Assembly: GCA_030295235.1 (NCBI GenBank)
Contig: AP026151.1
Span: 62,001 to 126,000 of the forward strand
From: Fistulifera solaris
Lineage: Eukaryota; Bacillariophyta; Bacillariophyceae; Naviculales; Stauroneidaceae
Length of the DNA: 64,000 nucleotides
Reading direction: 5' to 3'
Part shown: positions 43,903 to 64,000 of the stretch, one piece after another
Position numbering within the stretch: the stretch's first letter is position 1
How the letters are laid out: the number at the start of each line of letters is the position of its first letter
Position numbers and translations under genes: made by a program
The notes under the pieces: generated by a model
Databases searched by the model: none
Seen by the model: the letters and a program-made list of their open reading frames with translations, nothing else
Told to the model about the DNA's origin: nothing

Positions 43903-45511
43903 CTAAGGTCGCGATGCGTTCTGTCGCGCGACGCGAATACACCCTTGAATGTTGAGAAACCAACAAATAATTTGATTCCATGGATTTCCACCGCTAGGAC
44001 ACGGACAGTCCTTCTCCGACACATTATCGATTGGTCGACAGCCTACTTGCGATTGTGTCCCTAGACCAGCCCAGGTATAAACCGCATCAAACATATCTTT
44101 GCTCATGACTGGGCCGACATTGGCTCCACCAGATCCCCCGGCGTGATTTCCCAATGCTATATTTTCTTTAGTCAACAATGCACTCCCGGACATGCCTCCC
44201 GCAGTATCGCAGTAATATCGCAGGTAATGCGCACCATTTGAGCGAGCTGAGAAAAAGATTAAAAAAATAAAATCTGGTTAGTCGGAGAGCTCATCCAAAA
44301 GATTTTTAAGGCAGCTGCACTTACCAGGTGGAGAGCATGGCCCGGAAGTCGTCATTTCACCTCGTCTAAAGTCGTATGGGTATCCGGTGATTGTAATATC
44401 GGCTATTCGAGGGTCAATGACACCGTTAGATGAGCTAACGATACTATCGATTGCAACGTAGCCCACAATATCCCCTGGCTTTGTTGGGAGAGAAATAATA
44501 GAGTTAGACGATGTCGAGATTCGCAACATATCTGTAAGGATCAAATGAAGAGATACGTACGTAAACTTCATCACAGCCCAAATCCGGTCGACTGATTGGC
44601 TTGTATGTGACCACCGCCATATCAAAATATCTGTTTCGCGTCTCTCTATACTCTCCAAAAGCCGTAGCATAATCCACCTCCCACATTCCGAATGGTTCGA
44701 GATGTTGATTAGACTCCGAGTCAAAGTACCGCCCCGGCGCTATCCGGGTGATGGGCATAGGTCTTCCTTCGTTGTAATTCCATACACAGTGCGCCGCCGT
44801 TAAAGCAGAAGTCCGTGAAATCATGGTTGCGGTGCACGAGTTGTTGCCCCACCTATAGTCGCTAGCACCAATGGCTCGAAAAGGGTAGAGAGTCGTATCG
44901 GGGACGGCTGAGCGTGTATCGTTCCCTATGATAATCAGGTTTCGGTTTTTGACAATAAACTCGTATCCATCCGCAAGACCTTTGTATAATGTGGTGGGTC
45001 CCAAAGTTTCGTTGAGTAAGGAATAGCGCGACGCATATTCATAGCCGTCGCTGGTAATCCGAACGTAATGCCGATCGATGCCCGTCTCCTCCACTTCGTA
45101 TTCGTCATCGAAAGCAGACATATTCTCCAAATTCTCTATCTTTTTGGCGTATCGTGTACGCTTTGTAACGAATCGAAACTCTTCATCGGCAAATCGGGTA
45201 ATAGTAGCTTCATCGATGACTTCCGAGTTCATGACAAAAGCCGATTCTTCCAAGAGACTTTCGCAAGGCCCCAGACTATCCAATTCGATGCCCTAAAAGC
45301 CGATGAGTAAGACGAAAAGGTGTGAAAGGCGAACTTCTGCTCGTGAACCTACCTGACACCAGGCCAAACATTCATTTGCGTACGTTAATCCGTCAGATCC
45401 GCAGACGGCCGGTCCCATTACAAGGGCGTCCAAACTACAACCGGCACTACAATTGTAGTCGGCTCGAGCGAGTGTGAATGAAGCGGCGAGTAATGACCCA
45501 ATTCGAATCAT
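43903..45511 (-). CDS. Secreted Kazal-V8-like serine protease 1
   Basis: Four exons (45353-45511, 44561-45292, 44325-44478, 43903-44246) join without a frame break into 462 residues. After the signal peptide (MIRIGSLLAASFTLARA) comes a Kazal-like module: CSAGC, then PAVCGSDGLTYANECLAWC and the sixth Cys after intron 1. A pro-region (TRFADEEFRFVTK; TSDGYEY) precedes the likely mature start IIIGNDTR, which resembles the N terminus of S. aureus V8 protease. The triad is His in TAAHCVWN, Asp in FDMAVVTYKP and Ser in GGMSGSA. ITGYPYD and the later pocket His (LGNHAGG) also match V8, suggesting cleavage after Glu. The Cys-rich C terminus (CPCPSGG...CWFLNIQGC) is shared with its neighbours. Introns follow CQ (phase 0), VY (phase 0) and PG (phase 1). 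Confidence 0.9.
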
Positions 45512-46436
45512 GGCTTTCGTTTGTGTGTTGATTATGAGCAAGAGATTTATAAAAGATTAGATAATGAACGAGAAAAGGTTTCTTTCTTCTTTGCTTGTGA
45601 AAATAATGAGGACTTTCATTCCATTTTTGTTATATCTTATTGTCGTGTTTGTCAAGAATTGGCGACTGTCACTTGTTTAGTACACCATCGATATTTTTAG
45701 GTAGAAGGCGAATGTCGCAGACTCTCGCAGATCGCCAAAACCGTGTCGATCTTTTGTGTTGATCACAAAATAATCGGCCAAGGAAGAATACGACCATAAC
45801 AAACAAAATTTGAGATAGCAATGATATGTCATCGCGTCTCTCCGTATGACAGTGGCGTTTTCGTTGTATTTGCATCGTAGCGTCGCTCCTGTGACTTGGA
45901 GCAGAGAGGAATGGCAAACGCAAACCTCCGTATAGTTCTTTCCGAGTTGCACGCCTCATGAGCCAAAGTCATACGATGACGAGTCGTCCATCCTGTGGAC
46001 TGCACTCGTTATGAAATTGAGTCTCCCATACTGTGTTATCTCATTTTTGGAAGCTCGGAACCGCTGAAGGGCGCAGCATTGTGTTGACGTTGAGAGCTTG
46101 GAGTGAATGTGCGAATTAGAAGAATCGACGGACGACGTCGAGTTCTTGACTGACTCCTCGTCTGCTCAAACACAAAAGCAAGCCATCTCCCAGGCAACTA
46201 TTTTTTGGTTAATTTTCGTTATCATACTCAGTAAAAAAGGAGTAGAACTCTATTCGACGTCAACGAGTAATGGAGGAAAGAGCATGTTTTGGCGTCGACA
46301 AAAATTTCGCTTTACTGGTAAAACATCTCGTCAAAGCGACCAGTCTGTTTTCTGTTTCGGAAAATTCTAATCCGCTGGTATAAACACCGTTGTGAGAGTC
46401 ATCCCGGTGACTCAGCACGGTTCGCAATTCAGCACG
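45512..46436. other. Intergenic between proteases 1 and 2
   Basis: About 925 bases holding the protease 1 promoter. Open frames at 45669-45959 (-) and 46107-46370 (+) lack recognisable features and are not called. No repeat is seen. Confidence 0.45.
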
Positions 46437-48077
46437 CTACACCCTCGCTTGAAGGGACGCCAAACACGTTGCAAGGTTGCGGATCCAGCAACGAACGCGA
46501 CTTCTTCGATTGTTGGTGTATTGCGCGCAAGGACAGGAGGTGGGTCGCAACTGGCAATTGAGTGGTTCTTGATTGGCTAGTCCGGCAGTTTGATAAACAA
46601 AATCAAAGTTGATTCGGCTGAACATCACCGCACCATTGGAACTACCAAACCCCATATTGTGAACGCCTAAAATTTGATTTTTGAGTCGAAAGCACTGCAG
46701 ATCCGCTGCTCCCTCCTTCTGTATCACAGTAGTGGAGAATGTAGTTGGGACCATAGCTTTGAGCTTTGAAAAGTAACAAAGAACGTAAGCGAAAACAGCA
46801 GAGCGAGCTAAAAGCGAAGCGATGCTGTACGTACGGGGAGCCGAGCAAAGACCCGAAGTGACCATCTGTTGATTGAAATCGTAAGGATAACCCGTTAAAG
46901 TCATGGTTTGTAATCGCGTATCGGTTACTGATGTATCGGTTCCTGCAACTAGGTCAATGCCCAGGTAGCCGACAATGTCACCCGGCTGTCGTATCAACGA
47001 AAGATACAGTGGAAAAAGCGTCCAAGTGAGAAGAGGCGTTCCATTTAGTCATCCATCACTTGTGCTCAGGAGCAATTGATACTTACGTAAACCTGGGTAT
47101 TGTCACGGCAGGTATAACGTGTGTCGGTGCGCGGCTTGAAAGTAACGACGGCGAGATCCGCCGTCCTGGTCCTGCCATCGATGTATTCTTGCTTCACGGT
47201 GACGTAGTCGACGTCCCAGGTGCCAAACGGTTCCGCAGTGTTGTCGGCCTGCGTAGGATCGATGTAACGAGCCGGTGCTATCCGTGTCATGGGTCTCCAG
47301 CTCCTGGTACTATAATTGTAGGTACAGTGCCCTGCTGTGAGAGCCGATCGGCGCGAGATCATGGTTCCTGTGCATGACGATGGTTGGATGAGATCCAATG
47401 CTCCAATGGTGCGATAGGGAAAAACTGTAGTGTTTGTTATCACAGAGCGAGTGTCATCCCCGATGACGTCCAATGCCCTGTGTCGAAGATTGGTTGAAGT
47501 TTCTTGTGCAATACCCTGATATGGCTGAGTTGATGTCACCTTCGTAGGGGTGCTCGCCTTGGAAATAAATTTGTAGCCCTCGTGAGTCAAACGCACAAGA
47601 ATCTCTGTGGCGGGTACTTGAAGGGGAGAAAAGATATTGGACTCGTCCTCTTCCGATCCTTCTTCTATGATCGGTTCTGTCGAAAATTCGATTTCCTTTG
47701 TAACGAAACGAAAGTTTTCTTTCGCAAACCGATTCATTATTGCACGCGTAATAACTTCCGCGTTTCCAGAGAAATCAGGCATTGTTAATCTATCGGCATC
47801 TCCCGAGCACGGTCCAGAGGTAAATTTTTTGATGCCCTGAAGTTGACGACACGAGTGTTAGGACCGCTAACGACCGCATAGCCGTCACGAGACCACTTAC
47901 TTGACACGAGGCAACGCACCCGTTTACATAAGTAAGCAGGTCTTCGCCACACACTGGACCTCCCATAATAGCAGTATCCAAAGAGCATCCAGCATCGCAG
48001 TTGTATTGTGCAGCAACGCTGGCAAAACAAGAAGCGACGATAAGATATGATGCAATTATGTTCGAGAGTTTCAACAT
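46437..48077 (-). CDS. Secreted Kazal-V8-like serine protease 2
   Basis: Exons are 47901-48077, 47087-47836, 46835-46985 and 46437-46763, with the same three intron sites and phases as protease 1. Signal peptide: MLKLSNIIASYLIVASCFASVAAQ. The Kazal-like module has YNCDAGCSLD, GGPVCGEDLLTYVNGC, ASC and a sixth Cys in SGPCSGD. The pro-region reads MNRFAKENFRFVTKEIEF. The mature start is VIGDDTR. Triad: TAGHCTYN, ADLAVVTFKP and GGSSGSA; pocket His in LGVHNMG. A one-base frame change lies in an A5 run (plus-strand T5 46678-46682) just after the Ser; the paralogues confirm that LGVHNMG belongs in frame. Inferred to be an extracellular, Glu-specific, zymogen-type enzyme. About 467 residues. Confidence 0.87.
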
Positions 48078-49003
48078 CTTCGGCGTTTCCTTTATGTTTC
48101 GAACTTTCTTTTGACTGAATTGTTGGCTTTCACTTTGCGGACAAAGCGCGTCCAAATCTTACGACAAGTACTCCGTAGTTCAAATGAGTGTTTTCGAGCG
48201 CCAATGACATGGCCTCGATAATGAGGACGAGAAAATTCACATTTTTGGTTTTTCCGTTGCGCTGTCATCACGAATAGATAGAAAATTTTGTACAGAAAGT
48301 CTTCCGAAGAATAATGATCCGGCATTCCAACGGCTTTCAAATAGAGAGAAACAGCGTTAAATATTGAATTACATAAAGTGTCTAATTGCTAAGTACACCA
48401 AGGAAATTACTCTAAGAGAGTTCGTGGTAAATAATGACTCAAAGTGACCCACAAAGTGGAACATCGGGTCACATCGTAATAACACAGGTGTCCAATCAGA
48501 TGCAACGTTTGCCTTTTCGTGCACCTTTTGATTTTTGATTTCGCGAACGCAAAAACATAATGAGAGAATTCATTCGGTCGTCTTTTGTTATTCAAGTGAG
48601 TCGGGAGAGGATAATAATCGTTTGAAATTCTCTAATAAAGCATTTGTAGGTTTGATGTCTCCTAGATGCGCTGCTGGCGTGACTTTTGCTAACGGTAGAA
48701 TCATCAAGACATCGATCACTTGTTGCTGTTGCCCAAGCTGAAGCTAGCAAGGGCCGATCCATACAAAAGTGACAGCTTTACTAAAGCGCAAAGCTATGGG
48801 AAGCAAAGCAGATAAAGCCAATTGACCACAGCATGTCTTTTTTGTTTCCATTACCCAGATACGGACTCAGAAGCGCAGGTCCGTGGTGTAGATTAAAAAT
48901 GTACCTACATTGTGGAGATTGCAAAGTATATTTTAAACGGGCTTAATGATGCTGATTATGAGTTATACACAAGCCTCGTTGGCCAGACGCATAAAGTTGA
49001 CTA
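48078..49003. other. Intergenic between proteases 2 and 3
   Basis: About 925 bases, AT-rich, with the protease 2 promoter at the left. No gene, RNA or repeat array is recognised. Confidence 0.45.
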
Positions 49004-50593
49004 CTAACGGGCCAAACAAGCACCAAAGTTGCGTAGATTACATAGCAGTCGTGCAATTCTTCTGCTGCCGAACTCTGAACATGTGCAAGTTTGGGGCGCT
49101 TGACTCGTTAGCCCAGCCCAACTGGAAACAATGTCGAAATATTCGGGAGTCAGAACCGTGGCTCCATTGATTGTGCCTGATTGTGTTATCGGATTGTTAT
49201 GCGCTCCATTGTGGACGCCCAACACTATGTTGTCACTCGTCAAAGTTACGGCGCCACTCATCCCGGGTGTCGTGTCACTTTAGAGGTTTCATAGGAACGG
49301 CAGTTGTGCTTTAATGAGAAGCCAGAAATAATCAAAGCTGTTTGGTCGAACCACCACTCCTCACTTACCATGTGTGATAGATATACTTTGGCTTGGTGGA
49401 AAATGCTGCGATAAGAACGAGTCAAAGTCTGAGTAACTTGGAAAATGACCAAGTAATGATGAATACCCTCTCAAAACTTACGTGCAGTGGAACAGAGGCC
49501 TGTTGTGATCATCTTATGTTTCATATCGTATGGGTATCCTGTGATGGTCATGGTCGAGAATCGCGCATCGGTGACGTTTGCATTATCTTCCCCTACACGG
49601 TCAATGGACAAGTATCCGACAAAATCCCCAGGATAGACCGAAAAAATACCCAGAAAACGTCTCCTTCGCTTCTTGAACGTAACCACTCCCATGTCATAAA
49701 TTTCATCGCCTGATTCCTCATATCCCTTAAAGTAATTTGTGTAGTCGACGTCCCAAGTCCCAAAGGGTTCCGTGGTGTTATCACTCTGCTCAGGATTATA
49801 ATAACGACCTGGTGCGAACCGAATAACGTCATAAGGCTTTTTGGCCGCTCTATCGTAAAGGCAATGCGCCGCGGTGATACCAGAGGTCGGACTAATCATG
49901 GTAATCGTGCACCCAGATTCCGAGAAATCGAAATCTAAGCCTCCCATGGTCCGATAGGGAAAGATCGTCGAGTCCGGAACCATCGTCCTCGTGTCTTCTC
50001 CAACCACCACTAATTTTCGCTTGCGAAGACCCGGTTGATTCTCCGCAATACGGCCCTCGTAAGAAGGCGTGGGGCCCTGGATTTTGGCAAATGACTTGAC
50101 TTGGGAAATGAATTTGTATCCCTCACTGGTGACGCGTACGGTATCGAATCCATCCGGCGATAGAGACGATGAAAAGACATTCGAGTTGTGTACGAAATCG
50201 CGAATTGGATTTCTTGAAAAATCGATCTCTTTTGTGACGAATCGGAAACTTTCTTTCGCAAATCGACTCATAATTTCTCGCGTAATTACTTCGGTTTGAC
50301 CCGTAAGGTCCATCTGCTCAACGCGGTCTCCTTCACCCCCACAAGAGCCCGCAGTAAATTTGATGCCCTACACGAACGCGTTAGTACTCGCACGGAAGAA
50401 GCCATGTAACGGCAATGACACTTACTTGACAAAGCGCGAGACATCCGTTGGCGTAACTGATTCCATCGGCTCCGCAAACAGGTTGCCCCATGACGGTTGG
50501 ATCGAGACTGCAACCCGCATCGCAATTGTATTGTGCCGCTGCACGAGCGATCGCAAGGAGGAGAAGAAGTAAAGCGTTCCACATGTTGCGCAT
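49004..50593 (-). CDS. Secreted Kazal-V8-like serine protease 3, with a 37-base micro-exon
   Basis: Four exons: 50426-50593, 49482-50367, 49369-49405 and 49004-49277; together 1365 bases, one clean frame of 454 residues. Signal peptide MRNMWNALLLLLLAIARAAAQ. Kazal-like module YNCDAGCSLD, GQPVCGADGISYANGC, ALC, and a sixth Cys in AGSCGGE. Pro-region MSRFAKESFRFVTKEIDF; mature start VVVGEDTR. Triad TAAHCLYD, YDMGVVTFKK and GMSGAV; pocket His in LGVHNGA. The intron after VY in its siblings is absent (VYPGDFVGYL is continuous). The intron after CS(A/P) is replaced by two introns flanking a 37-base exon encoding FSTKPKYIYHT. The micro-exon restores the CDTTPGMSG reading, which otherwise runs into a stop. 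Alternative start: Met at 50584. Confidence 0.87.
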
Positions 50594-51295
50594 TCGATTG
50601 GAAGATCTTGGCTTTCGAAAACGCAAACGCCTTTTGGAAATGACAGCACCTTCCGATGCAACGCTGAAGAACATTTCCAACTGAAGTCATTCGGCGGGGC
50701 GGGCTCGGAGCAATTCCGAGGGCTTTATACAAAACACGTCTAAAAAAATTCGTGTGGTCTTGTCTGTACTTGACCTTGTTATCTAAAAAGTCCGCAAAGA
50801 CACTAAACCATTTTTGGCAAGATCCGTAAGTACTAAGTACCTAAAATTATAGTAAATATAAAACGCGCTAACCGACCATTTCCCTTTAATAAAATGATCA
50901 ACGGCTGCAAAGTATCGAGCGGGGAGAGAGAAGCTTTTTTTCGCTATGACCTCATTTCATTTTTTTTCTGTTTTCAAACTGGAAACTAAAACCTCGTTCT
51001 ACTCCTCCGAAATCCATGTTCCGAGAAAAAAAATAGCCGTTACTTGGATCGATCATCATTCGAGCTTCGAACGCGTGCTTTGTATGTGCAATATGTGATG
51101 ACGGAGGAAAGGTTTGTTTGTCTCATGTGAAGAGGCGTGCAAAGGAGCCATTTGAAATCGACGATGTAAAACCAAAGATACGCTAAAGTTTTGAAGGTCT
51201 TTATTAAACGTGTACTTGTTAATTGGAAAACAAAAACAATGATGACGTTACTATAACACTCTCTACAATCGCGGATGTGAGACACACACACTAGC
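50594..51295. other. Intergenic, upstream of protease 3
   Basis: About 700 bases with the protease 3 promoter. No gene or repeat is recognised before the minisatellite that begins at 51296. Confidence 0.45.
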
Positions 51296-51927
51296 TATGC
51301 CCACAATTTTCTGGACACGTGAAAAAAGCACCTCCCCACATTTTCTGGACACGTGAAAAAGCACCTCCCCACATTTTCTGGACACGTGAAAAAAGCACTT
51401 GCCCACATTTTCTGGAGAAGTGAAAAAAGCACATCCCCACATTTTCTGGACACGTGAAAAATCATTTCCCCACATTTTCTAGACACGTGAAAAAGCGCAT
51501 CTCCACATTTTTTGGCCACGTCAAACATGTACTTGCCCACATTTTCTGGAAAGTCAACAATGCACATGCCCACCTTTTTCTGGAGACGTGAAAAAAGCAC
51601 ATGCCCACATTTTCTGGACTCGTGAAAAACACATTCCCACATTTTCTGGAGAAGTGAAAAAGCACTTGCCCACATTTCCTGGACACGTGAAAATAACGCT
51701 TCCCCACATTTTCTGGAGACGTGAAAAAACACATCCCCACATTTTCTGGACACGTGAAAAACACCTCCCCACATTTTCTGGAAACGTGAAAACAACCCAC
51801 CCCCACATTTTCTAAAAGTGAAAAAAAACGCTCGCCCACATTTCCTGGACAAGTGAAAGTAACGCTTGCCCATATTTTCTGGATACGTGAAATAACCCTC
51901 GCCCACATTTTCTGGAGACGTGAAAAT
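51296..51927. repeat. Minisatellite of 31-33 bases, about 19 copies
   Basis: The unit is CCCACATTTTCTGG followed by ACACGTGAAAAA and a variable GCACxTxC spacer. Copies are degenerate and vary by 1-3 bases. Most hold a CACGTG palindrome or a one-base variant. Because the unit is not a multiple of three and lacks stops in its reverse complement, long open frames appear in all three minus frames (up to 203 codons). These are by-products of the repeat. It lies between proteases 3 and 4. Confidence 0.93.
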
Positions 51928-52165
51928 AAAACATTGTTAAGAATAGTCCTTTTCGTAAATTTTTTAGAAAAAAGTGTCTAATTCTGCTTCAAACGCTAGA
52001 GTAGAAGGTCGTTAGGTGCATATTGCAAATACGCTTTCTAGTTTTGATAGATGTTTTGGTGAATTAACGCGCGAATATCTCATGTGAGTCTAGTGTACTT
52101 GTACAGTTGCCACTTGAGGCTAGAGCTTCGAAGGGCATGATATGCAGCAAGATTTAGCGGATTTA
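51928..52165. other. 3' flank of protease 4
   Basis: Unique AT-rich sequence between the minisatellite and the protease 4 stop codon. No feature is recognised. Confidence 0.4.
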
Positions 52166-53792
52166 TCAAATTCGGTTCGCGCTTTCCAGTGCCAGCCGCA
52201 AACAACCTCGAAAGTTTATAAACCAACAAATTGCTCGCTGTGACGGATTGGTTTGTGATGAACAGGGACACGCGTTTGATGCTGAGCATACGAATGCCCG
52301 TTGGTCTGCTAGTCCTGCCCAAGTATATACGGAATCAAAGAGTTGGTCCTTTAGAACAGCACCTCCATTGCGACTGGATACCCAATTTCCATGAGCATGG
52401 ACACCGACAGCAACATTGTTCGGGAGTAAGAAGCTACTTCCGCTCATCCCCGCAACCGTATCGCAAAAATGCCAAATATAGTGTGAACCGCCTGACAATG
52501 CTATCATATAATATGAAAGGATGAGCGTCATATATTCCGACATTATCTCGCATCTTGTCGCTAGCTTCCCACTTACCTTCGCGAGAACACGCGTTAGAGG
52601 TGACCATCTTTCCAAAATAGTCGTTCGGATAGCCAGTAACAGTGAGAGAGGCCAAGCGCGGATCATTCACGGCAGAACTTGTTCCTAAGACTCGATCGAT
52701 TCCAACAAATCCAACGACGTCGCCCGGCTTTTACCAGGAAGACAGAGCCAAATTGAGGCGACAGCACTTCATTGAATTGCGAAAGCACAGAGATATACTT
52801 ACGTAGACGTTGGAGCAACCGAGATCGGGGCGATTGGATGGCTTAAACGTGACGACAGCCATGTCAAACTGTTCGTCTTTTTCTTTGTAATTCTGGAATG
52901 TTGTCGTATAATCCACATCCCACGTTCCATAAGGATCTATCATACTACCAGTCGAAGCATCCACGTATCGTCCTGGAGCCACCTTCATCATCGGAAGCGG
53001 CTCGTTGGTGCTCGTTCGCCAAACACAATGACCGGCTGTTAACGCTGAAGTCCGAGAAATCATTGTAACTGTGCAGATGCTGGTCCCTTTGGTATAATTA
53101 TAGTCCGCGGAACCGATGGCACGAAAGGGAAAAGCGGTCGTATCTGGAACAATGCTACGAGTGTCTGTTCCGATGACAATTAAATTTCGATCACGAAGAA
53201 GCTTTCGGTCAACTTGACCAGCAAGACCCTCGTTCGCAGCACTGGAACCTGGAGTACCAGTTGATTGTGTGGATTCCAACGGAGCCATGAACTCGTAACC
53301 TTCGCTAGTAATACGCAAAAAGTGGGAACGAAGAGGGACGCCGAGACGATCCACCAAGTCGGATTCTACGACATCTTCGTAATCATCGAGCTGTGTAGCA
53401 AATTTGACTCGCTTTGTCACAAAACGAAAGCTCTCGTGCGCGAACCGATTCATCACATCCATTGTTATCACATCAGCACTTCCTGGAAAATCAAACCCAG
53501 ATAATCGGCTTTCATTCATTCCGTCACATGACCCGTAATTGAATTTAGTGACGCCCTGTACAACAGTCAGATCAACCAGTCGTTAGTCTCTTTGTCTGCT
53601 GCATCATGCAATGCAACACTTTTGTGCACTTACTTGACACCACGCCACACACGCATTTTGATAAGTAAAGCCCTCGTCGTCGCATACCGATGGACCCATT
53701 ATGCTTCCATCGAGAGAACATCCTACGTTACAATCATACTGCGACGCCACGCAGGTAAAGGACGACAGAATTAACACTAGTGTCTTTCGCAT
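52166..53792 (-). CDS. Secreted Kazal-V8-like serine protease 4
   Basis: Exons 53634-53792, 52803-53555, 52577-52727 and 52166-52491 give a clean 462-residue frame with the same intron sites as proteases 1 and 2. Signal peptide MRKTLVLILSSFTCVAS. Kazal-like module YDCNVGCSLD, GPSVCDDEGFTYQNAC, AWC and a sixth Cys in YGSCDG. Pro-region MNRFAHESFRFVTKRVKF; mature start VIGTDTR. Triad TAGHCVWR, FDMAVVTFKP and AGMSGSS; pocket His in VGVHAHG. ITGYP is VTGYPND here, as in V8 (VTGYPGD). The C terminus repeats the CPC...CWFINFRGCLRLA pattern of protease 1, its closest relative. Confidence 0.9.
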
Positions 53793-55002
53793 TTGTCTCT
53801 TCAGGATTTTTGAACGTTAAATGAAATCAATATAGACACAAAGTTGTTTCACCGATCGGCGGATGATAATGACGGCATTGTTGCGTACTGGTAGGGAATA
53901 AAGGTCTTTGCTTCCGCTTTTGAGACGTCGGCGCGGGCCGAAAATTTCTATTTATTGGTGACACGTCTTAAATACCCAAAATTACGAAATACAAAAGTGT
54001 TGAGTTATTTCGTTCGCGGTTCATCAACTTGTTTCCCAATTAAATTGTTCTGTGAAAATTGTGGACAGTATACTTTTTATTGTAGTCAATGTCCTTATTT
54101 ACTTTATTTATCTTTGTCGTCCGTCGTCCTGTCGTCCATCATCCATCATCCGTCATCCGTCATCCGCATTGAACATGGAGGATGGAGGGAGAATTTGACG
54201 TGCACCTTCCAATCCCAACGGAAATCTATCGGATGTCGTTCTAGAGCGGAGAACGAATGAAAGTCCACCATCATTGGTGGAGAAATTTTCAGGAACTGCA
54301 ATCCACTAGGGTGGCGTCCGTCATCAATCAGACAGCAAACATTTGAAAGACGAGAACGTTGCTTGCCGATTACAACGTCTAGATCGGCAAATGCACTTCT
54401 CTCGTGGCGAACTGCGCATTTTCCGATGATGACGGCAATAACAACAGAATCTAATCTCTAGAGAATCATAGACAAAAAGTCGAGTTCCACCTTCCTTGGG
54501 ATCGCATTTACCTCTCTGTGAGCCTTTATGAGAAAAATATTTCGTGAGAGGGAGAATCGAATCAAGTTTATTGGACGAACACACCAATGATAGTCGAAAG
54601 GTCTTTTCGCAAATTTAAGGAGAACAAAAGATACAGCTAAAATGATGTTGGTGGACCTTCACTTGTGTTTTTCTTCTTAAACATAAGGTATCACTTGCGA
54701 AGATGATGGCAACGAGGGCGACAACCATCGAGCATTCATAAAAGGTGCAGAAAATGCCCTTCAACGCAGTGGAAGTCGATGTAACAATTGAAATCAGTTG
54801 CTGTTATCTAAAATGTGCAAGTAGGTAAATGCTACTGAGAAGAGTTTAGGCTTTCCAGTTTAACTTTTTTTGATTGCGATGCGAGGTGGTAGGCATCTCT
54901 CGGGTAAGCTACTGGTCAATAGATATCCATGAAGTGAAAACACTTACCAGTATCGTTTGTGCGATAAAACGACACAAAAGTATCTTAGTTCGCAGATTAT
55001 TT
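53793..55002. other. Intergenic between proteases 4 and 5
   Basis: About 1.2 kb with a small CGTCATC/CATCATC microsatellite at 54116-54170. No gene is recognised; several short open frames lack protein-like features. Confidence 0.45.
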
Positions 55003-57189
55003 TTACATCAGTCGTCTCTTCTTGCCACCTTTCCCACTTGAGCTTTTCTTGGAGCTACTACTATACTTTTTCTGTTTCTTCTTTTTGCCGCCCTTGCCTT
55101 TACCGGAATACGGTTGTGATACCGGAGCTGCGACTGGATTTGTCGGATTCCTGACAGGTTGGGTCGGAAGAATATCCGCAGTCGGCCCAACAAAAGTGGG
55201 TGATGTCACGGGGCTGCCGACGGGCAATGCTTGAGGCACTGTTGCAGGCGGCACAACGGGTCTCGGAACGGGGATGATCTCAGGCACGGGAGCAGGTAGA
55301 GCAACGGGAATGGCGACGGGCGCCGCCTGAGGCACTGGTGCGGGAGGCACAACGGGTCTGGGAACGGGCACGATCTCTGACACAGGAGGAGGAAGCAGAA
55401 CCGGGCTAGGAACGGGCACGATCTGAGGAACCGGAGCCGGGAGCACAATGGGGCTGATGACTTTCACTGGCTGGGCCACTGGAGCGGGCTGTGGCGCTGC
55501 GACTGGTAGAACGATAGGGCTGATGACTTTCACTGGCTGAGACACTGGAGCGGGTTCTGTTTCACGTGTTGGACCAGTAACCTGCGAAGGGGTTGGCGCC
55601 TGCAGAACAATTGGAGACAGTCCTGGTGAAGGTTGTCTTTGCGGAGCTGATACAGGTTTTTTGAACCGGAGGGGCAACTGGTTGTACAACCGGTGATAAT
55701 ACCTCAGTTCGAGAACACAAGCTTTGACCTTTCCCATGTCCAGCCCATTCATAGATAGATGCATACAAGCGAGTCGTCATCATCACAGCCCCATTCATGC
55801 TTGTTGTTGCGGTCTGAACTCCATGGGTATGAACTCCTAAAGCGATGTTTCCCTCCACGATGACACTAGATCCGGAATTTCCTCCGACGGTGTCACAGTA
55901 GTGATTTATATAGTTAGCCCTGCGACTTTCAGGAGCTAGAATGGAAATCGGAGGGTGTTTTTGTGAGTTTGTGGCGACAAGGAATAATTATAGTACATAG
56001 AGTTAGCGTTATTCGACTTACCTCGATCGCACGGACCGGAGGTCGCCATTTGTCGATTATAGTCGTACGGATAGCCGGTGATCACCATCGTGTTCAAGCG
56101 GCTATCCACAACTCGTCCATCCACTTCAGCCGGACGATCAAGTCCGATATGGCCTAAAGCGTCTCCGGGCTAAGATAGAAAGAGAGTCTGAGTGAGAGAG
56201 TGGTTTTGGACGTCCTTTGATAATCCAGAGGTACTTACGTATAGCTCCTTACAGGTAGAAAGATTGTTGCGGATACGTGGTTTATAGGTCACAACCGCAA
56301 TGTCGAAATTAGTTTGTCCAAGCTGCTGAAAGTTCCCAAACAACGAAACGTAATCCACTTCCCACGTTCCAAAGGGTTCCGCCGTCCCGTCTCTCTTTGT
56401 TGCATCACGAAATCTTGCCGGAGCAATCGCAGTCATATTCATAGGCCCCTTCCTGTTCGTATTCCAGACACAATGTCCTGCCGTCAGTGCCGAGGTTCGG
56501 CTGATGAGCGTTAGAGTACAGCCTCCTTCTCCCCACCAATAATCAGCATTAGCTATAGTACGGAACGGGTAACGAGTTGTATCCGCAACGGGAACTCTCG
56601 AGTCTTGTCCGATCAAGACCAACTCTCTACGAGTCGCATTGCCCTCGCCGTCGTCATCCAGTCCGTTTTCGCCTAAAAGCCCTAGTTGCGGCGCTACTGG
56701 CTGGAGGAGCGACTCCTCTTCAAACATCAATGTCGTTCGATACTCGTATCCTTCGGGCGTGAATCGATAATTGGGAATAAACTGGTCATCCATTTCCTCC
56801 AGGAAACCATCGTCCGTTTCATTGATCATTTGCTCCTCGAGCAGGTAGCGGATATCTTCTTCGAAATTAGTCGATGGTAGACGCTTTCCAACGAAACGAT
56901 AATCCGAAAAACGTGTCATGGTACTCATGGGAATAACTTGCGGATCCGACGAGACGAAGGACTCTTGGAAAGGATCTTCTCCTTCGCAGACACCCAAACT
57001 AGCAACGGTAATGTTTTGACATACCGCCAAACATTCGTTTAGATACGTGAGATTGTCATCTCCACACACTGGAGGTCCCATAAGGCTAGCATCCAAGCTG
57101 CAGCCGACGTTGCAATCATATGTTGTCTGTGACGCAACGATCGAAAGAACAGAGGCCAACGCCACGAGATGTAGGAGAGCTTCTTTCAT
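55003..57189 (-). CDS. Secreted Kazal-V8-like serine protease 5 with Pro-rich repeats and silaffin-like tail
   Basis: Exons 56239-57189, 56022-56169 and 55003-55935; the intron after CQ is absent (AVCQNITVASLGVCEG is continuous). Signal peptide MKEALLHLVALASVLSIVAS. Kazal-like module YDCNVGCSLD, GPPVCGDDNLTYLNEC. Triad TAGHCVWN, FDIAVVTYKP and GGNSGSS; pocket His in LGVHTHG. The catalytic domain is followed by about 170 residues of PAPVPQ/PVVPP/PVKVISPIVLP repeats (about 55640-55150). The protein ends YSGKGKGGKKKKQKKYS, then SSSKKSSSGKGGKKRRLM. This tail resembles silaffin-1 R5 (SSKKSGSYSGSKGSKRRIL) in its SSKKS, GxK and terminal RR-I/L order, suggesting attachment to biosilica or acidic wall polymers. 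A one-base frame change at T6 55657-55662 separates the domain from the repeats. About 676 residues. Confidence 0.85.
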
Positions 57190-57672
57190 GATGCTCTTCA
57201 CTGGAATTCTGATTGTTCTTTTGCGTCTTTGCTTTTCTTGATGGTTGCTTTGGTTTATGTCTGTATTGTTGGAAATTGCTGACACTTCTTTCGAACGATC
57301 GGAGAAAGCATTTTCGAAAATGTGGACTTGAAATCTTTCTTTCGCACCGCCTAACGCTCCAAATTCTCGCCTCCATAAATGTGTATCCTATCAATTCAGT
57401 ACAAGTTAATCAGCATTTAGGAGATTTCCTTCAACCGCGAATATTCTTTTACGCAGTTAGCGATAAGCGTCTTCCGTTGTGTACCGCATGAGACATTTGT
57501 CTGTCCGTTGGCTCGATGGGAGGGTGAAAAAGCTCCGCCAAGGCGCCAAGGCTCGTCCGCCGTCGCGCGTGTGCACGAAAAGAACAACAACAACAACACG
57601 CAGCGACGAAAGGGCAACAATCCTTGGCAATCGTCCCATTCTTTAATTCTTCTTTCTATTATCGAGACTATA
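57190..57672. promoter_or_regulatory. Divergent promoter of proteases 5 and 6
   Basis: These 483 bases separate two head-to-head protease start codons and must hold both promoters. There is an AAC microsatellite at 57583-57598. Shared control of the two genes is possible. No motif is assigned. Confidence 0.5.
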
Positions 57673-59138
57673 ATGCCTTTAAAAATCTTTCTGTCGATCT
57701 ATAGGCATTCAATTGTACTGCTTGTCTTCTTTCTGGCGCTCTCCAGCAGTCAATCTTCATCTTCTTATGACTGTGAAAACGAGGGATGCCCATGGACTGT
57801 TGCTCCTCCTGTTTGCGGTGTGAACGGCGTAACCTATGCAAATGAGTGTTTAGCTTTTGCCAAGTGAGTAGTTCCGCTTCCTTCACTAAGCCTGTCATGA
57901 TGCTCTTGCTGTATCGTGTGGAGGATGCTTTGTCATCGAAACAAGGATTTGCAGTTTTTTCTTTCTCTGCCCGTACTTAATCTTACTTCTTTTCCTCGCA
58001 GAATATACCAATTGCTTCCATCGGCCCTTGTTCCGGCGATGGCGATATTGCTTCTATTCCTTATGACGATGGCACGAATGCGACTATATCAATCATGCAG
58101 CGGTTTCGTAACGAGAATTTTATGCTGACAGGAAGAAGGAATCTAGATGATCTCGCACTTCCAGAAAACAATCCAACGTTTCATTTAGAGGAGCGAAAAG
58201 ACGATTCGATTCTCGAACAACAACCCTTGTTGTGGAGTCGTTTTACGTCAGATGGTTATGTCTATACGGCGGTTGTGACAGACGAGGATAACAGACGATT
58301 CTTACAAGAGTTGCAAAACATTTACGAGTCACGTAGCAATCGCTCCTTGATTGTCATAGGTCCTGACACACGAAAGGTTGTCACCGACAACCAGGATCGC
58401 TTGCCTTACTCTCCCATTGTTGAACTAGACTACGGGTTTGGGAATTCAGAGGGTGGATGTACTGGGACATTAATTGGGAAAAGTTCGGTTCTCACGGCGG
58501 CCCATTGTTTGTACAATTTCGTGGAGAAACAATTCACTAATCCCTTACGCATGGCTCCTGGTCGGTATCGTCAAGGAACCAATACAATTGAGCCTCACGG
58601 ACTCTTCGGCTTTCGCTATTCGACCTTTTTCACTACGTATCAATCGACAGGAGACGCACGCTACGATATGGGCGTCGCTACGTACAATGCAAACAGCCAA
58701 GGCAAATTTCCAGGTCAACTCGCAGGTACGCTTTGCTTGGCAGAAGCCGCGACACAAAAGCTTACGGCAGAAACTATTTTAGCTGGCTATCCGATGGATT
58801 TTCTTGACGGAAATCTAGCGGAATCTCGGGGTTGCAAGTGGAGTCTTGAGACTGGGATCATTTCACATGACTGTGATACAACAGGTGGACAATCCGGGGC
58901 CCCTATCGTCTCCTCGATGTCCGAAATGCTGGGAATTCACATCGGATATAATCCCAATACTTTTATCAACATTGCGCTCGGTTGGAACAATGCTACTTAC
59001 AGTTCGGTGTATGCATGGGCTCCCGATGCCAGGAGTTGTCCGGATCGAAGATTTTGTAGCAACTGCCCTGCCCTCGAGGGTCCTTTGAGGCGTACACTGT
59101 GTTCTCTGGTGTGCCTCTTGTTCGGTAATGCGGAATGA
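57673..59138 (+). CDS. Secreted Kazal-V8-like serine protease 6 (divergent member)
   Basis: Exon 1 (57673-57863/4) encodes a signal peptide (MPLKIFLSIYRHSIVLLVFFLALSSS) and most of a Kazal-like module (YDCENEGCPWTVAPPVCG, then VTYANEC). Its inhibitory loop is shorter than in the siblings and carries Trp where they have Leu. Exon 2 (58002-59138) holds the sixth Cys (IGPCSGDG), a pro-region (MQRFRNENFMLTGRRN), the mature start VIGPDTR and the protease: TAAHCLYN, YDMGVATYN, GGQSGAP, pocket His in LGIHIGY. The only intron lies after the Kazal exon; at its donor the frame fits only if one G is missing (AAGTGAG for AAGGTGAG), a likely assembly indel. No later introns. The C terminus keeps two Cys pairs (CPDRRFCSNC). 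About 442 residues. Confidence 0.86.
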
Positions 59139-59323
59139 TACTTCGAGTATGCTGTTGCATTCTTAACAACCTTGGATGAAGGAAATCAACGCACACCAGT
59201 AGAGAAACGCCGAATCAGTGGTCGTTTTATCGCGTGTTGAAGACTTTATTGATTACGCTAAACGCATCCTAGTGTTTAATCTCAAGAGAGATGATGGTGC
59301 AATAGATGGTTCACTGGAGCTGA

Positions 59324-60097
59324 TCATGCCAAGTCGTCACGATCTTTTCGCGTATCCTTTGGCTGAATCTTTTCGAGTAACTTGCTACAAAATTTCCAGG
59401 CTTGAACTGAGGCTGTTTGTAAGGAACCCACGGCTCGTTGTAGTTGCTGCTGCTGTCGGAGAGACTGGTCGTGTGAATAAAGCAATTGACGCAACGTATG
59501 TTGAAGTCGTTGCATCTCATGCTGCAGCATCATAACATGATTGTCTTGACGGTGCAACCGATCGTGTAGCAAGGCGATTTGGCTTTCCTGAGTATGATGA
59601 AGTTGAAGATATAGTTCGCGAAGCTGTGACTGAATGAGCTCCATTGCTTGAGCTTGACTTGCAGATGCAGCGTTGTTCAACGGCGCGAATCGATTCCCGG
59701 ACTCGTCGTGGCCCTGAGACCCATAGAATGGTTCAGCGATCCCTGTGCACATGCGACTTTGGTTTGAGATACTCTGGGACGGCACAGCGTATCTATGATG
59801 CGTGAACCTTTGCTGCAGTGGAATCGGACTGACAGTCACTTCTTCTTCAAGTTTGCTTTTGGGTGCATCAATACTTGCCGCGGAGTCTTTGTTCTTTGAT
59901 TCGCGGTTGACAATCTTTGCGCGGGAACGTTTGCCGGCTATCGCCGTTGCCCCTTGCGGCTCCTCATCGGATGATTCCAAGAGGTAAATTGTCGCTTTGC
60001 GCTTTCGTTGATTGTTCTCCGTCTCGTTCGCCTTTTTCTGCTCGGAAATGAAATCCAGATCTTTCTTGTTGTCAGCAATGCTGCGTGAAGTATTCAT
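59324..60097 (-). CDS. Coiled-coil protein, probably nuclear, unknown function
   Basis: This is an unbroken 257-residue frame. The N-terminal half is charged and disordered, with basic clusters (NQRKRKATIYLLES; GKRSRAKIVNRESK) that could be nuclear signals and an ESSDEEP casein-kinase-2-like acidic site. The C-terminal half (about 145-235) is Gln/His/Leu rich with heptad spacing (LRELYLQLHHTQESQIALL; MQRLQHTLRQLLYSHDQSL), predicting a coiled coil. There is no signal peptide, so it is unrelated to the flanking secreted proteases. I do not recognise the family. Confidence 0.6.
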   Translation of the reverse strand: MNTSRSIADNKKDLDFISEQKKANETENNQRKRKATIYLLESSDEEPQGATAIAGKRSRAKIVNRESKNKDSAASIDAPKSKLEEEVTVSPIPLQQRFTHHRYAVPSQSISNQSRMCTGIAEPFYGSQGHDESGNRFAPLNNAASASQAQAMELIQSQLRELYLQLHHTQESQIALLHDRLHRQDNHVMMLQHEMQRLQHTLRQLLYSHDQSLRQQQQLQRAVGSLQTASVQAWKFCSKLLEKIQPKDTRKDRDDLA

Positions 60098-61264
60098 GAT
60101 CGGCTTGTGCGGGTTTAATCAAATGACAGTGAGGAGATGTTATGCTGCAAACAAAAACTATTACGTAGCAACAAAAGTGAGGGAAAGGACACATGAGAAG
60201 CCCCCTGCAAGAATACACCGGATCGTATCATTCTTTTTTGCGCACGGAGGATTCTTCGACGCGATGTTGCAGAGAGGGTGATTGATTCGCCGAGTGTCAC
60301 GCAATCCCGCACGTATCAACATACCTGGACGTTTCGTCTCTTATTTCCTTTTCCTCTGTTTTGAAAAGGTATGTTAATATGAGTAACGGCGATATGGAAT
60401 GCAACAAACTTTTGTCGAGCGATCGTAGCGAACGAATAAAGATGACAATGAAAGAAGAAGGCGATCGAACTGATTGCGTACCAGGTATCCCGTTGACATG
60501 CATGCGTGTATGAACAAACTCGGTGCGACGATGATCTCGTTCCGTTATATCGGTTACCAGTACCATGCGCGACACACAAAGGTACTACGCACGCAAAAGA
60601 GCAACTAGAGAGGTCTCTAGAGTATGTAAACGCAAATGCTAGGCGTCATTGGGGAATAATTCGTTAAAAATTCTACTGTTTAATCTCTACAGAGGGACAG
60701 CGCGATGGACGATTAGGCCTATAATGCCTTCTCTTTCTCTGTGTCAAAGAGGCTTGCAGAAGGGAAAAATGATTTGTACCTGGTAGGGGACCTACGGATG
60801 TCCCCACTCATGACGATACGTGATCTGTCCTCCCATCGGTTATTTCTGTCCGTCCCACCGTCCGTACGCGCCAGCAGGACCATGAAACCGTTAACAACAG
60901 TACACAAAAAAGCACTGTTCTATCTTCATAGGTTTACCGCGAGAGTCATTCCAAGTCGGAGAACTCAAATTCTTTCGCATTATCGTATGTGGCAACTTTA
61001 TTAATCGTTCCTTTTCGCGAAAAATATGATGCAACACCCAACTTTCAATTCGACAAACAAAGTTAAGTATGTTTGAAGATCTTTCGATGGATCGCAAGTT
61101 TCGAAAACGACATCACAAAGCGGAAAACAGCGGTGGCAGACGTTCCTTCACGGTCGTTTAGACTGACTCTGGATGATTTATCTACAAAGTCATGTAATTC
61201 TGATCACCGTAAAGTCTAAACAATCACTTTTTCCCTTTCAATTTGGTCCTTTCCCAAGGAAGGA
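60098..61264. other. Intergenic, with one arm of a 35-bp inverted repeat
   Basis: No gene is recognised. The left arm of a perfect inverted repeat lies at 60785-60819; its partner is at 62211-62245. A word AACTCGGTGCGACG at about 60517 recurs near 62292 in direct orientation. Confidence 0.5.
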
Positions 61265-62245
61265 CTCGTCGTTTACTAAGATAATTTTATTGAGAAATTA
61301 GCGTTCGTGACCGGACTCGTCCTTTACGTAGGGAAGATGTAGGGAAAATTTATTGAGAAAACCAGCGTTCGTGACCGGACTCGTCCTTTACGAAGGGAAA
61401 ATGTAGGGAAAAGTAATTGAGAAAACTAGCGTTCGTGACCGGACTCGTCCGTTACGAAGGGAAAATGTAGGGAAAATTAATTGAGAAATTAGCGTTCGTG
61501 ACCGGACTCGTCCTTTACGAAGGGTAAATAATGATTAAGGACGTATAAAAATGTAGGGAAAGTTTATTGAGAAAACTAGACTACTTGTACGTACATCGAA
61601 AAATAGTGAGAGAAGTAACTTTCGTTGTTGGATTCCTTAGAGTTTGGTCTCGTTACCGAAGCGAATATTGTTGCAAGCATCTCCTATAACAATTAAATAA
61701 CAATATCACTTTCATGAAGAAACGAGACTAATCCTCATCAACTTATTGCAACGAAATTATGTCGCTATATAAACTATTCTTTATTACCTCGCTCGCCTTG
61801 TTTCGTCGTCGGCAAGCCCGATTTGTTGCGCTTGACTGGGACGGCTTCCTAAAAGTACCAAGATTGATTTGGACTTTGAGATAAAGGCACATCGTAATTT
61901 GCGGTGTAATTAATTGAACGACTGACTACTCTTTTTTCGTTTTCGACGATGACAGAAATTGTGACATCATCTGGTAGCTTCATTGCTGCTTCAATATATG
62001 CTGGAACCGTTGCTTTTGGACTCTGATTAATTCCTTTTCGTGTTGCCCATACCGTCACGTTGGGCGGAGCATTGTCTCCGACTTCGCAAAAAAAAAAAGA
62101 TGTGTGCTATTGCACGGTGTGAAGGGAGAGCCGTTGAGAGGCCGGCTGGCGTGGCCGGCAGGCGTTTGCTTATTCGCTTTCGAGTTACACGTGGAAGTGA
62201 CGTCATGGGGGTATCGTCATGAGTGGGGACATCCGTAGGTCCCCT
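60785..62245. repeat. Perfect 35-bp inverted repeat, arms 1.4 kb apart
   Basis: The left arm (60785-60819) begins AGGGGACCTACGGATGTCCC and the right arm (62211-62245) is its exact reverse complement. Each arm itself holds a GGGGAC-8-GTCCCC hairpin. Identity ends sharply on both sides. The interior has no transposase-like frame. It may be the ends of a non-autonomous element or two copies of a short dispersed repeat. Confidence 0.75.
61265..61580. repeat. Tandem repeat of about 60-65 bases, about 4-5 copies
   Basis: The word GCGTTCGTGACCGGACTCGT recurs at about 61302, 61364, 61429 and 61492, each followed by a TTTACG(A/T)AGGG / ATGTAGGGAAAA / TTGAGAAA block. The copies are imperfect and the array fades at both ends. 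It has no coding potential. Confidence 0.88.
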
Positions 62246-62699
62246 AAAGTCGTTGCACGGTTGAGTGCTATTTGTTTGAAGAAAAATGAATGAACTCGGT
62301 GCGACGGTCATTCCTACGATGTGACACACACATTGTGGGCGTATGCGAAAAACTTAGACGTGGATACTGAAAGCCCAATGACAACACGAAAGAACACAAC
62401 TACGTACAGTATTTCTATATTTATCAATACCGTTTGACGCTGGATCGCTACTGGAAAATTGAAGTTTGATAAAGAAATAATAGGAAATAGTATCAGGTTT
62501 TTATCGGAAGAGTTTTCGTCACAGTAGACAGTTGTCGTGCGAATTTGTCCGAAGTCCGAAATTTTGAAACTCAACGGTCACAACGGCGCACCTCGGGGAC
62601 AAAAAGAAAAACGAAAAAATATTGCCACCCAAGAAGGAAAACACAACAACAATAGGATTCGAGAGCCTTGCTTTGCTAACAACCACTTCCTCAATCAAC
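61581..62699. other. Intergenic, upstream of protease 7, with the second arm of the inverted repeat
   Basis: No gene is recognised. It contains the right arm of the 35-bp inverted repeat (62211-62245) and an A run at 62088-62098. The protease 7 promoter must lie at the right end. Confidence 0.45.
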
Positions 62700-64000
62700 A
62701 TGACTTGGTATTCGTTTCTCAGTATATCAATAGCTATAATAGCAGTGAGTTTGCTCGCACCAAGCAGTCTCACTGTGGTCGTTTCAGCACAAGAAGTACA
62801 ACAACCGACCTACGATTGTCGAACCGGCTGTAGTTTGGATGCCAACATCAATGGACCTCCTGTGTGCGGCATCGATCAACTGACTTATTTGAATGAATGT
62901 TTAGCGGTGTGTCAAAACGTGGCGATCGTACATTACGGTCCGTGCAATCAAGATGGTTCGATTTCCGAAAGTGAGCTCTCCACCGATTCAGAGGTAGTTA
63001 CGATGGAGCTCATGACACGATTTATATCACGAGGATATCGTTTCGTGTCGAAAAACACCAGATTTCTGAGTCAGCCGGAGAATATAGAAGAGTCGGTTGT
63101 TGTGAGTGCGGCCGAAAGCGCGAGTGTTGGGGCTGTGGAAGACATTGAGCCGTATTTCGTTTTATTCACTCCCGATGGATATGAATACGCTTATCGTGCC
63201 ACCGACTCGTTGCCTTCGTATCCTGGACCGACACCGTTGTATATGGGAATGCAACAGCTACGGGAACGTAACTTAGCTATCATCGGTGCCGACACGCGAA
63301 CGGCCATCACGAATACTCGAGCCTATCCGTATCGGACGATCGGCGAGGCCGACTTTGGTACGCTCGAAGGCGGCTGCACGTTAACCATGATTTCGCGCAA
63401 TGCAGCAATCACAGCTGGGCACTGTGTTTACAATTTTCAAAACAAAGTTCCTATTCAAATGAAACGCATTGCGCCAGGGAGATATAGAGACAGTTCCGGA
63501 AACACGGTAGAACCCTTTGGTACCTGGGAAGTGGAAACGATGCAAACTTTTGGGCAATTCAAAGCACAGGGAAATATGACATTCGATTTGGCAGTAGTGA
63601 CGTTTGCACCAGAGACACGCGACAACATGCAGAATTGTCCATACGTCTATCCTGGAGATGTCGTTGGGTTCCTTTCATTAGATAGAGCTCAAACCAGCGG
63701 AGGGCGCGTCAGTGATAGTCGACTCGCGTCTTCCACTATTACCGGATACCCTGCAGACTTTCCGAATGGTGTAATGGCAACATCAGGAACGTGCTCCAAA
63801 GGTAGGTCATATTTTCGGGGACGAGTACGTTTAGCTTTGACCGTAATACCGATATCCTCATTCTTCGCATTCTCTCAAGCATGGCATTCTGATCACGAAC
63901 ATTTTGCCTACCATTACTGCGATACGTTTGGTGGGAATTCCGGGTCAGCAGTGATCACGAGTGGAAATGTTGTAATAGGAGAGCACGCGTATGGCTTCTA
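62700..64000 (+). CDS. Secreted Kazal-V8-like serine protease 7, partial at right edge
   Basis: Exon 1 (62700-63801) runs from the signal peptide (MTWYSFLSISIAIIAVSLLA...VVVSAQ) through a Kazal-like module (YDCRTGCSLD, GPPVCGIDQLTYLNEC, VAIVHYGPC), a pro-region (MTRFISRGYRFVSKNTRF), the mature start IIGADTR, His (TAGHCVYN), Asp (FDLAVVTF) and ITGYPAD. The introns after CQ and VY seen in proteases 1, 2 and 4 are both absent. A 78-base intron (63802-63879) sits at the third, phase-1 site. Exon 2 gives YHYCDTFGGNSGSA with the catalytic Ser and IGEHAYG with the pocket His, then the window ends. The Kazal module is most like that of protease 5. Confidence 0.88.
   Translation, partial: MTWYSFLSISIAIIAVSLLAPSSLTVVVSAQEVQQPTYDCRTGCSLDANINGPPVCGIDQLTYLNECLAVCQNVAIVHYGPCNQDGSISESELSTDSEVVTMELMTRFISRGYRFVSKNTRFLSQPENIEESVVVSAAESASVGAVEDIEPYFVLFTPDGYEYAYRATDSLPSYPGPTPLYMGMQQLRERNLAIIGADTRTAITNTRAYPYRTIGEADFGTLEGGCTLTMISRNAAITAGHCVYNFQNKVPIQMKRIAPGRYRDSSGNTVEPFGTWEVETMQTFGQFKAQGNMTFDLAVVTFAPETRDNMQNCPYVYPGDVVGFLSLDRAQTSGGRVSDSRLASSTITGYPADFPNGVMATSGTCSKGRSYFRGRVRLALTVIPISSFFAFSQAWHSDHEHFAYHYCDTFGGNSGSAVITSGNVVIGEHAYGF

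What the first reader, a model, noticed from the sequence alone, without database searches (positions are those of the whole stretch)
43903..64000. Array of seven secreted proteases, each fused to its own Kazal-like inhibitor module
All seven genes encode signal peptide, six-cysteine Kazal-like module (C-x6-Y-x3-C-x3-C core), conserved pro-region and S1B/V8-like protease. Kazal domains are canonical serine-protease inhibitors, so each product may carry its own inhibitor in cis, as a latency device or a trans inhibitor released on activation. In six members the stretch between the second and third Cys is about 4 residues longer than in classical Kazal domains and keeps SLD just after the Cys, which may mark a distinct subfamily. 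The architecture is read directly; self-inhibition is inference.
Basis: partly seen in the sequence, partly recalled or inferred. Interest (0 to 1): 0.8.

Follow-up and report, generated by a model that had tools for sequence, protein, structure and literature searches.

The report
Seven proteases with Kazal-like front modules
A eukaryotic genome carries a row of seven related genes for secreted protein-cutting enzymes, each with a small front module that appears to have the fold of a known protease inhibitor, but whose loop is changed so that it probably does something other than simply plug its own enzyme.

Summary
The array is real. Seven paralogous genes (43903-64000; five on -, two on +) encode a hydrophobic N-terminus, a Kazal-like module, a variable pro-region, and a serine protease closest to Bacillus intermedius glutamyl endopeptidase (1p3c). 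Catalytic His, Asp and Ser are present in 7 of 7. Corrections: the six-cysteine module is complete in 6 of 7; three genes show a frame break at a homopolymer; the last gene leaves the window. Sequence and predicted structure support a Kazal fold. In six members the C2-C3 stretch has 11 residues, not the classical 7, and in the one module modelled part of it forms a helical turn. SLD is invariant in those six, and the putative P1 (Leu, or Trp) does not suit a protease whose pocket residues match an acid-specific enzyme. Self-inhibition is thus not supported, though not excluded: AlphaFold did not place the module. R-x-L stands directly before the mature first residue in 7 of 7, which suggests that module and pro-region leave together. 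Verdict: a tandem zymogen family with an unusual Kazal-protease fusion; new variant of a known kind, moderate interest.

The parts
43903..45511 (-). g1: complete gene, 462 aa, 4 exons (45511-45353, 45292-44561, 44478-44325, 44246-43903); Kazal module 45457-45353 + 45292-45263; predicted mature protease from 44935
   Evidence: spliced model, GT-AG introns of 60, 82, 78 bp; module Kazal_2 29.1 bits against a cut-off of 22.8, 22.6 when the whole protein is scanned; Trypsin_2 28.6 against 27.6
46437..48077 (-). g2: gene with one frame break near 46683 (A-run); Kazal module 48005-47901 + 47836-47807; predicted mature protease from 47470
   Evidence: six Kazal Cys and H/D/S present before the break; the GVH motif lies after it, in the other frame
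49004..50593 (-). g3: complete gene, 454 aa, 4 exons (50593-50426, 50367-49482, 49405-49369, 49277-49004); Kazal module 50530-50426 + 50367-50341; predicted mature protease from 50010
   Evidence: Kazal_1 21.7 against 21
52166..53792 (-). g4: complete gene, 462 aa, 4 exons (53792-53634, 53555-52803, 52727-52577, 52491-52166); Kazal module 53738-53634 + 53555-53526; predicted mature protease from 53180
   Evidence: Kazal_1 15 bits, below its cut-off
55003..57189 (-). g5: exons 57189-56239, 56169-56022, 55935-; Kazal module 57120-56986 without intron; predicted mature protease from 56619; frame change at an A6 run near 55660, then a Pro-rich repeat and Lys/Ser-rich tail to 55003
   Evidence: Kazal_2 22.2 against 22.8
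57673..59138 (+). g6: divergent member; Kazal module 57766-57855 and 58002-58031 with a frame break at 57856-57862 that removes C5 in the literal reading; C2-C3 of 8 residues; no intron after 58002; predicted mature protease from 58350
   Evidence: Kazal_2 31.6 bits against 22.8 for the first-exon ORF, Trypsin 32.2 against 20.6 for the second
62700..64000 (+). g7: cut by the window end after the catalytic Ser and the GEH motif; Kazal module 62811-62945 without intron; intron 63802-63879; predicted mature protease from 63276
   Evidence: modelled as a whole, module alone; Kazal_2 18.1 bits, below its cut-off

Best explanation
A tandemly duplicated family of secreted zymogens. Shown by sequence: each precursor is N-terminal hydrophobic segment, Kazal-like module, variable pro-region, glutamyl-endopeptidase-like (S1B) protease. 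Inferred: the enzyme is made inactive, as its bacterial relatives are, because its mature N-terminus is not free; one cut at the conserved R-x-L directly before mature residue 1 removes module and pro-region together and switches the enzyme on; the active enzyme prefers acidic residues at P1. Inferred: the Kazal-like module is not a canonical plug for its own active site. Its lengthened, invariant loop makes it more likely a conserved folding, docking or partner-binding element of the prosegment, as the Kazal-like parts of HtrA1 and agrin are thought to be (recalled).
For: Protease family: profile best hit 1p3c, E 2.6e-25, aligned from 1p3c residue 1; Foldseek best hit 1p3c, E 2.8e-13. Acid-pocket residues: CDT and GxH, the Thr and His aligned with those of 1p3c, in 7 of 7. 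R-x-L before mature residue 1: 7 of 7 (6 by script; g5, whose VLIG the pattern missed, by eye). Module at least as conserved as the protease: mean pairwise identity 56.8% (59.0% without g6; 52.6% without g6 and without Cys columns) against 44.4% (48.3% without g6); pro-region 28.1% (31.0%). Loop: helix at residues 16-19 of the g7 module model, just after SLD; pLDDT of the block 11-20 is 85. Putative P1 (second residue after C2) Leu in 6, Trp in 1.
Against: Invariant loop residues would equally suit a fixed target in cis. The relation of loop to cleft is unknown: module block pLDDT 44-52 in the whole-precursor model. Much of the module's lead in conservation comes from its cysteines. R-x-L cleavage is inferred, and the Arg alone could be the site. 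Acid specificity is inferred from two residues, and the His is present in only 11 of 20 bacterial relatives aligned (read). The loop helix rests on one model built from 10 rows, 7 of them from this window.
Confidence: 0.5

Rival explanations
1. Self-inhibition: the Kazal module binds its own active site in cis, keeps the zymogen latent, and may stay on as an inhibitor after cleavage.
For: Kazal fold supported; one module per protease in 7 of 7; the module is the segment with the highest mean identity and SLD is invariant in 6, as a fixed cis target would require.
Against: Putative P1 Leu or Trp against pocket residues typical of acid specificity; if the loop register shifted so that the Asp of SLD were P1, g3 would have Pro at P1' and g6 no Asp at all; helical turn predicted in the loop of g7; no confident placement at the cleft.
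Confidence: 0.2
2. Trans-inhibition: the module inhibits other, Leu-accepting proteases (subtilisin- or chymotrypsin-like), protecting the precursor from outside proteases or being released with the pro-region.
For: Leu at the classical P1 position in 6 of 7; the R-x-L site would release module and pro-region as one fragment; the nearest solved structures include free inhibitors (LDTI, silk protease inhibitor 2).
Against: Contact residues of Kazal trans-inhibitors usually vary fast (recalled), here SLD is invariant in 6 paralogues; the loop is 4 residues longer than classical and predicted partly helical.
Confidence: 0.22
3. The array is decaying: frame breaks show pseudogenes and the modules have no present function.
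For: Frame breaks in 3 of 7 genes.
Against: Triad intact in 7 of 7; the 15 introns printed for the models all have GT-AG ends; frames otherwise open at 29.6-49.4% pairwise identity. What looks like a fourth homopolymer break (T7 near 42565) lies in the unrelated neighbouring beta-propeller gene, which fits base-calling errors (continuity of that gene read by eye).
Confidence: 0.08

Closest known systems
Bacillus intermedius glutamyl endopeptidase (1p3c) and the S1B / V8-like family
   Same: Best sequence and fold match; similar start of the mature chain (I-G-x-D-x-R), triad, and the aligned Thr and His of the acid pocket
   Different: Extra cysteines and Cys-rich C-tails here
Leech-derived tryptase inhibitor (LDTI) and other short non-classical Kazal domains
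   Same: Among the nearest solved domains by sequence and first by predicted fold; the same C4-x3-C5-x10-C6 spacing (alignment)
   Different: C2-C3 has 11 residues in 6 members instead of 7 (LDTI length recalled); invariant SLD; fused to a protease
HtrA1/3/4 (IGFBP-Kazal module, trypsin-like protease, PDZ) and complement factor I (recalled)
   Same: A Kazal-like domain and a chymotrypsin-fold protease in one secreted chain; the role of the HtrA N-terminal domains is called elusive (PMC5823240, abstract start, passages)
   Different: Different protease subfamily (S1B), no IGFBP part seen; probably an independent fusion, since that paper found no HtrA with Mac25 or Kazal domains outside vertebrates
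Oomycete secreted Kazal proteins (EPI type)
   Same: Secreted Kazal-type inhibitors in stramenopiles (PMC3790786, passages seen)
   Different: Known as inhibitors of host proteases without a protease domain (recalled)
Glutamyl endopeptidase family protein of Gephyrocapsa oceanica coccoliths
   Same: An algal protein of the coccolith proteome named for the same enzyme family (PMC11685980, passages seen)
   Different: No Kazal module mentioned in the passages seen; its sequence was not compared

Membership tests
Kazal family (MEROPS I1) | Six-Cys pattern with C-x6-Y-x3-C core | tested here: met
   6 of 7 complete, core in 7 of 7; g6 lacks C5 as written
Kazal family (MEROPS I1) | Pfam curated cut-off | tested here: inconclusive
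   3 of 7 module ORFs above a Kazal cut-off (g1, g3, g6), 4 below (g2, g4, g5, g7); spliced modules of all but g6: Kazal_1 in 6 of 6 and Kazal_2 in 5 of 6 at E up to 0.1
Kazal family (MEROPS I1) | Kazal fold | tested here: met
   Predicted for g7; nearest LDTI TM 0.62/0.77, prob 1.00, but E only 0.025
Canonical Kazal inhibitors | Extended reactive-site loop of 7 residues between C2 and C3 (length recalled) | tested here: not met
   11 residues in 6 of 7, 8 in g6; helical turn predicted in g7
Canonical Kazal inhibitors | Inhibits a serine protease | not testable with these tools
   needs an assay
Glutamyl endopeptidases (S1B) | His-Asp-Ser triad in chymotrypsin fold | tested here: met
   triad 7 of 7; fold predicted for g7, 13 of the 16 ten-residue blocks from 201 to 360 at pLDDT 90 or more, best hit 1p3c
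Glutamyl endopeptidases (S1B) | Thr190 and His213 equivalents of the acid pocket | tested here: met
   7 of 7, aligned to 1p3c; numbering and role recalled
Glutamyl endopeptidases (S1B) | Cleavage after Glu/Asp | not testable with these tools
   needs an assay
HtrA1-type Kazal proteases | PDZ domain and IGFBP part | tested here: not met
   no PDZ or IGFBP match at E up to 0.1 in the Pfam scan of the 6 rows of A1; g5, g6 and g7 are partial there and g2 is not included

The most novel reading that the evidence does not exclude
A protist lineage evolved, apart from animals, a zymogen family in which a Kazal fold with a remodelled, helix-bearing loop is a built-in cis regulator of a glutamyl endopeptidase: a 'latch' that holds the enzyme by a non-canonical contact until one R-x-L cut removes module and pro-region at once.
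Probability: 0.2. Interest if true: 0.65.

Novelty: new variant of a known kind. Interest (0 to 1): 0.4.

Why it matters
Kazal domains are usually read as inhibitors. A row of seven proteases that keep an altered Kazal module at least as conserved as the enzyme itself is a natural test of whether such modules can be zymogen or docking parts. The one-to-one pairing, short length and conserved R-x-L site make the question directly testable by expression.

Tried and rejected
Rejected: a non-Kazal fold. Rejected: chance Cys pattern. Not supported: inheritance of the fusion from bacteria, as far as 80 bacterial loci and 1 viral locus go; this does not reach other eukaryotes. Led nowhere: whole-precursor placement; viral-contig scan with the module (11 stretches, 0 relatives); Kazal_2 in 3 and then 398 prokaryote genomes (0 hits, but the 14 controls were also silent, so uninformative); NCBIfam (5 of 6 rows touch the OAT transporter model, best 1.4e-05, far under its cut-off where shown (11.7 against 280 bits); solved organic anion transporter chains also match the module weakly). 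Papers: of the rows listed (25 of 28; 15 of 15; 3 of 3; 1 of 1), none is by title or abstract start about a diatom or stramenopile Kazal-protease fusion; one search was too loose to tell (15 of 503 listed, none holding 'kazal'). The library lacks most subscription journals. HtrA1, autoinhibition and propeptide searches. [quoted passage not shown] R-x-L processing: PMC11754927 passages say the oomycete protease is not settled; the analogy stays a guess.
Full report
What was checked. g1-g5 lie on the minus strand and g6-g7 on the plus strand; gaps between coding parts are 925, 926, 1572, 1210, 483 and 3561 bp. g1, g3 and g4 are complete (462, 454, 462 aa). g2, g5 and g6 each show one frame break at an A or T run (in g5 an unmodelled intron is possible); g7 leaves the window after the catalytic Ser. 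What looks like a fourth homopolymer break (T7, near 42565) sits in the neighbouring beta-propeller gene, so base-calling errors are a simple cause; pseudogenes are not excluded. Pairwise identity is 29.6 to 49.4%.

The module. Cys spacing is C-x3-C-x11-C-x10-C-x3-C-x10-C in five genes, with x9 at the end in g3; g6 has C-x4-C-x8-C-x10-C and no C5 as written. A profile of six modules matches solved Kazal domains: leech tryptase inhibitor 1.7e-9, rhodniin 2.1e-8, and the many-domain chain of agrin 1e-15 (best single stretch 0.0093). Against Pfam, 3 of 7 module ORFs pass a curated cut-off and 4 do not. The module of g7 alone, with 9 further rows (6 of this window, 3 viral Kazal domains), folds at mean pLDDT 82.1. 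Its Foldseek list (50 shown of 91) holds, by title, only Kazal and Kazal-like entries (follistatin and IGFBP7 included), led by LDTI, though no E-value is below 0.001. I take it as a Kazal fold.

The loop. In classical Kazal inhibitors the seven residues between C2 and C3 form the extended reactive-site loop with P1 two residues after C2 (recalled). Six members have 11 residues, C-S-L-D-x-x-[ILV]-[MN]-G-x-x-V-C, and SLD is invariant. In the g7 model residues 16-19, just after SLD, are helical, so the Asp may act as a helix cap (inference). The residue at P1 is Leu in six and Trp in g6. Were the Asp itself P1, g3 would have Pro at P1' and g6 would lack it.

The protease. The profile of the family (6 rows) hits Bacillus intermedius glutamyl endopeptidase 1p3c at E 2.6e-25, aligned from its residue 1; the fold search gives the same first hit, E 2.8e-13. 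The triad is present in 7 of 7. So are the Thr (CDT) and His (GxH) that align with those of 1p3c (in g2 the His lies beyond the frame break); in Glu-specific enzymes these line the S1 pocket (recalled). Among the 20 bacterial rows the His is present in 11. The seven window proteins form one clade apart from these 20 (support 99/99; midpoint-rooted); g5 and g7 pair (94/89).

Latency and processing. Every precursor has R-x-L directly before the residue that aligns with residue 1 of mature 1p3c. A cut there would free the mature N-terminus in the register of the bacterial enzyme and remove module and pro-region together. In this protease family a free mature N-terminus is needed for activity (recalled), so latency does not require a Kazal plug. 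Which protease would cut is open; R-x-L is also the core of the oomycete RXLR site, whose protease is unsettled (PMC11754927, passages seen).

Does the module inhibit its own enzyme? For: one per enzyme, the highest mean identity of the segments (59.0% against 48.3% for the protease and 31.0% for the pro-region, without g6; the lead shrinks to 52.6% against 48.3% when Cys columns are left out of the module), and an invariant loop. Against: loop length and predicted helix, and P1 mismatch with an acid-type pocket. Undecided: AlphaFold on the whole g7 precursor (40 rows) gave block pLDDT of 84-97 through residues 201-360 of the protease, 44-52 in the module and 31-62 in the pro-region (mean 65.9, pTM 0.54), so the distance of loop and cleft is not known.

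Origin. The phase-0 intron after C5-Gln lies inside the module in g1-g4, and g6 has an intron at the same place; g5 and g7 lack it. The fusion thus predates the duplications (inference).

Known or new. Kazal-like domains joined to chymotrypsin-fold proteases are known in HtrA1/3/4 (PMC5823240, passages) and complement factor I (recalled). A fusion to an S1B glutamyl-endopeptidase-like enzyme with this loop was not seen in the listings of the paper searches made, which cover open-licence papers only. I file it as a new variant of a known kind, interest 0.4.

Noticed in passing
55003-55660 (-): C-terminal part of g5: Pro-rich repeat (48/96-bp periods) ending in a Lys/Ser-rich tail, unlike its paralogues; might bind it to an extracellular matrix or cell wall.
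   Followed up: no
42560-42575 (+): T7 run at an apparent frame break in a Beta_propel (PF09826) gene beside the array.
   Followed up: partly
51300-51926: 33-bp tandem repeat, 18.7 copies, between g3 and g4.
   Followed up: no
61289-61529: 64-bp tandem repeat, 3.8 copies, between g6 and g7.
   Followed up: no
24902-25678 and 28126-30030 (-): ORFs with a repeated short Cys motif (FGTRADGQPCxRC..GKFCFQH); the second begins with a DnaJ-like stretch and holds a long repeat array (read by eye).
   Followed up: no
30777-34325 (+): Fucose pyrophosphorylase domain followed by GHMP kinase domains in a second ORF, probably one bifunctional fucose-salvage gene.
   Followed up: partly
57190-57672: g5 and g6 are divergent with 483 bp between their start codons, perhaps a shared promoter.
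   Followed up: no
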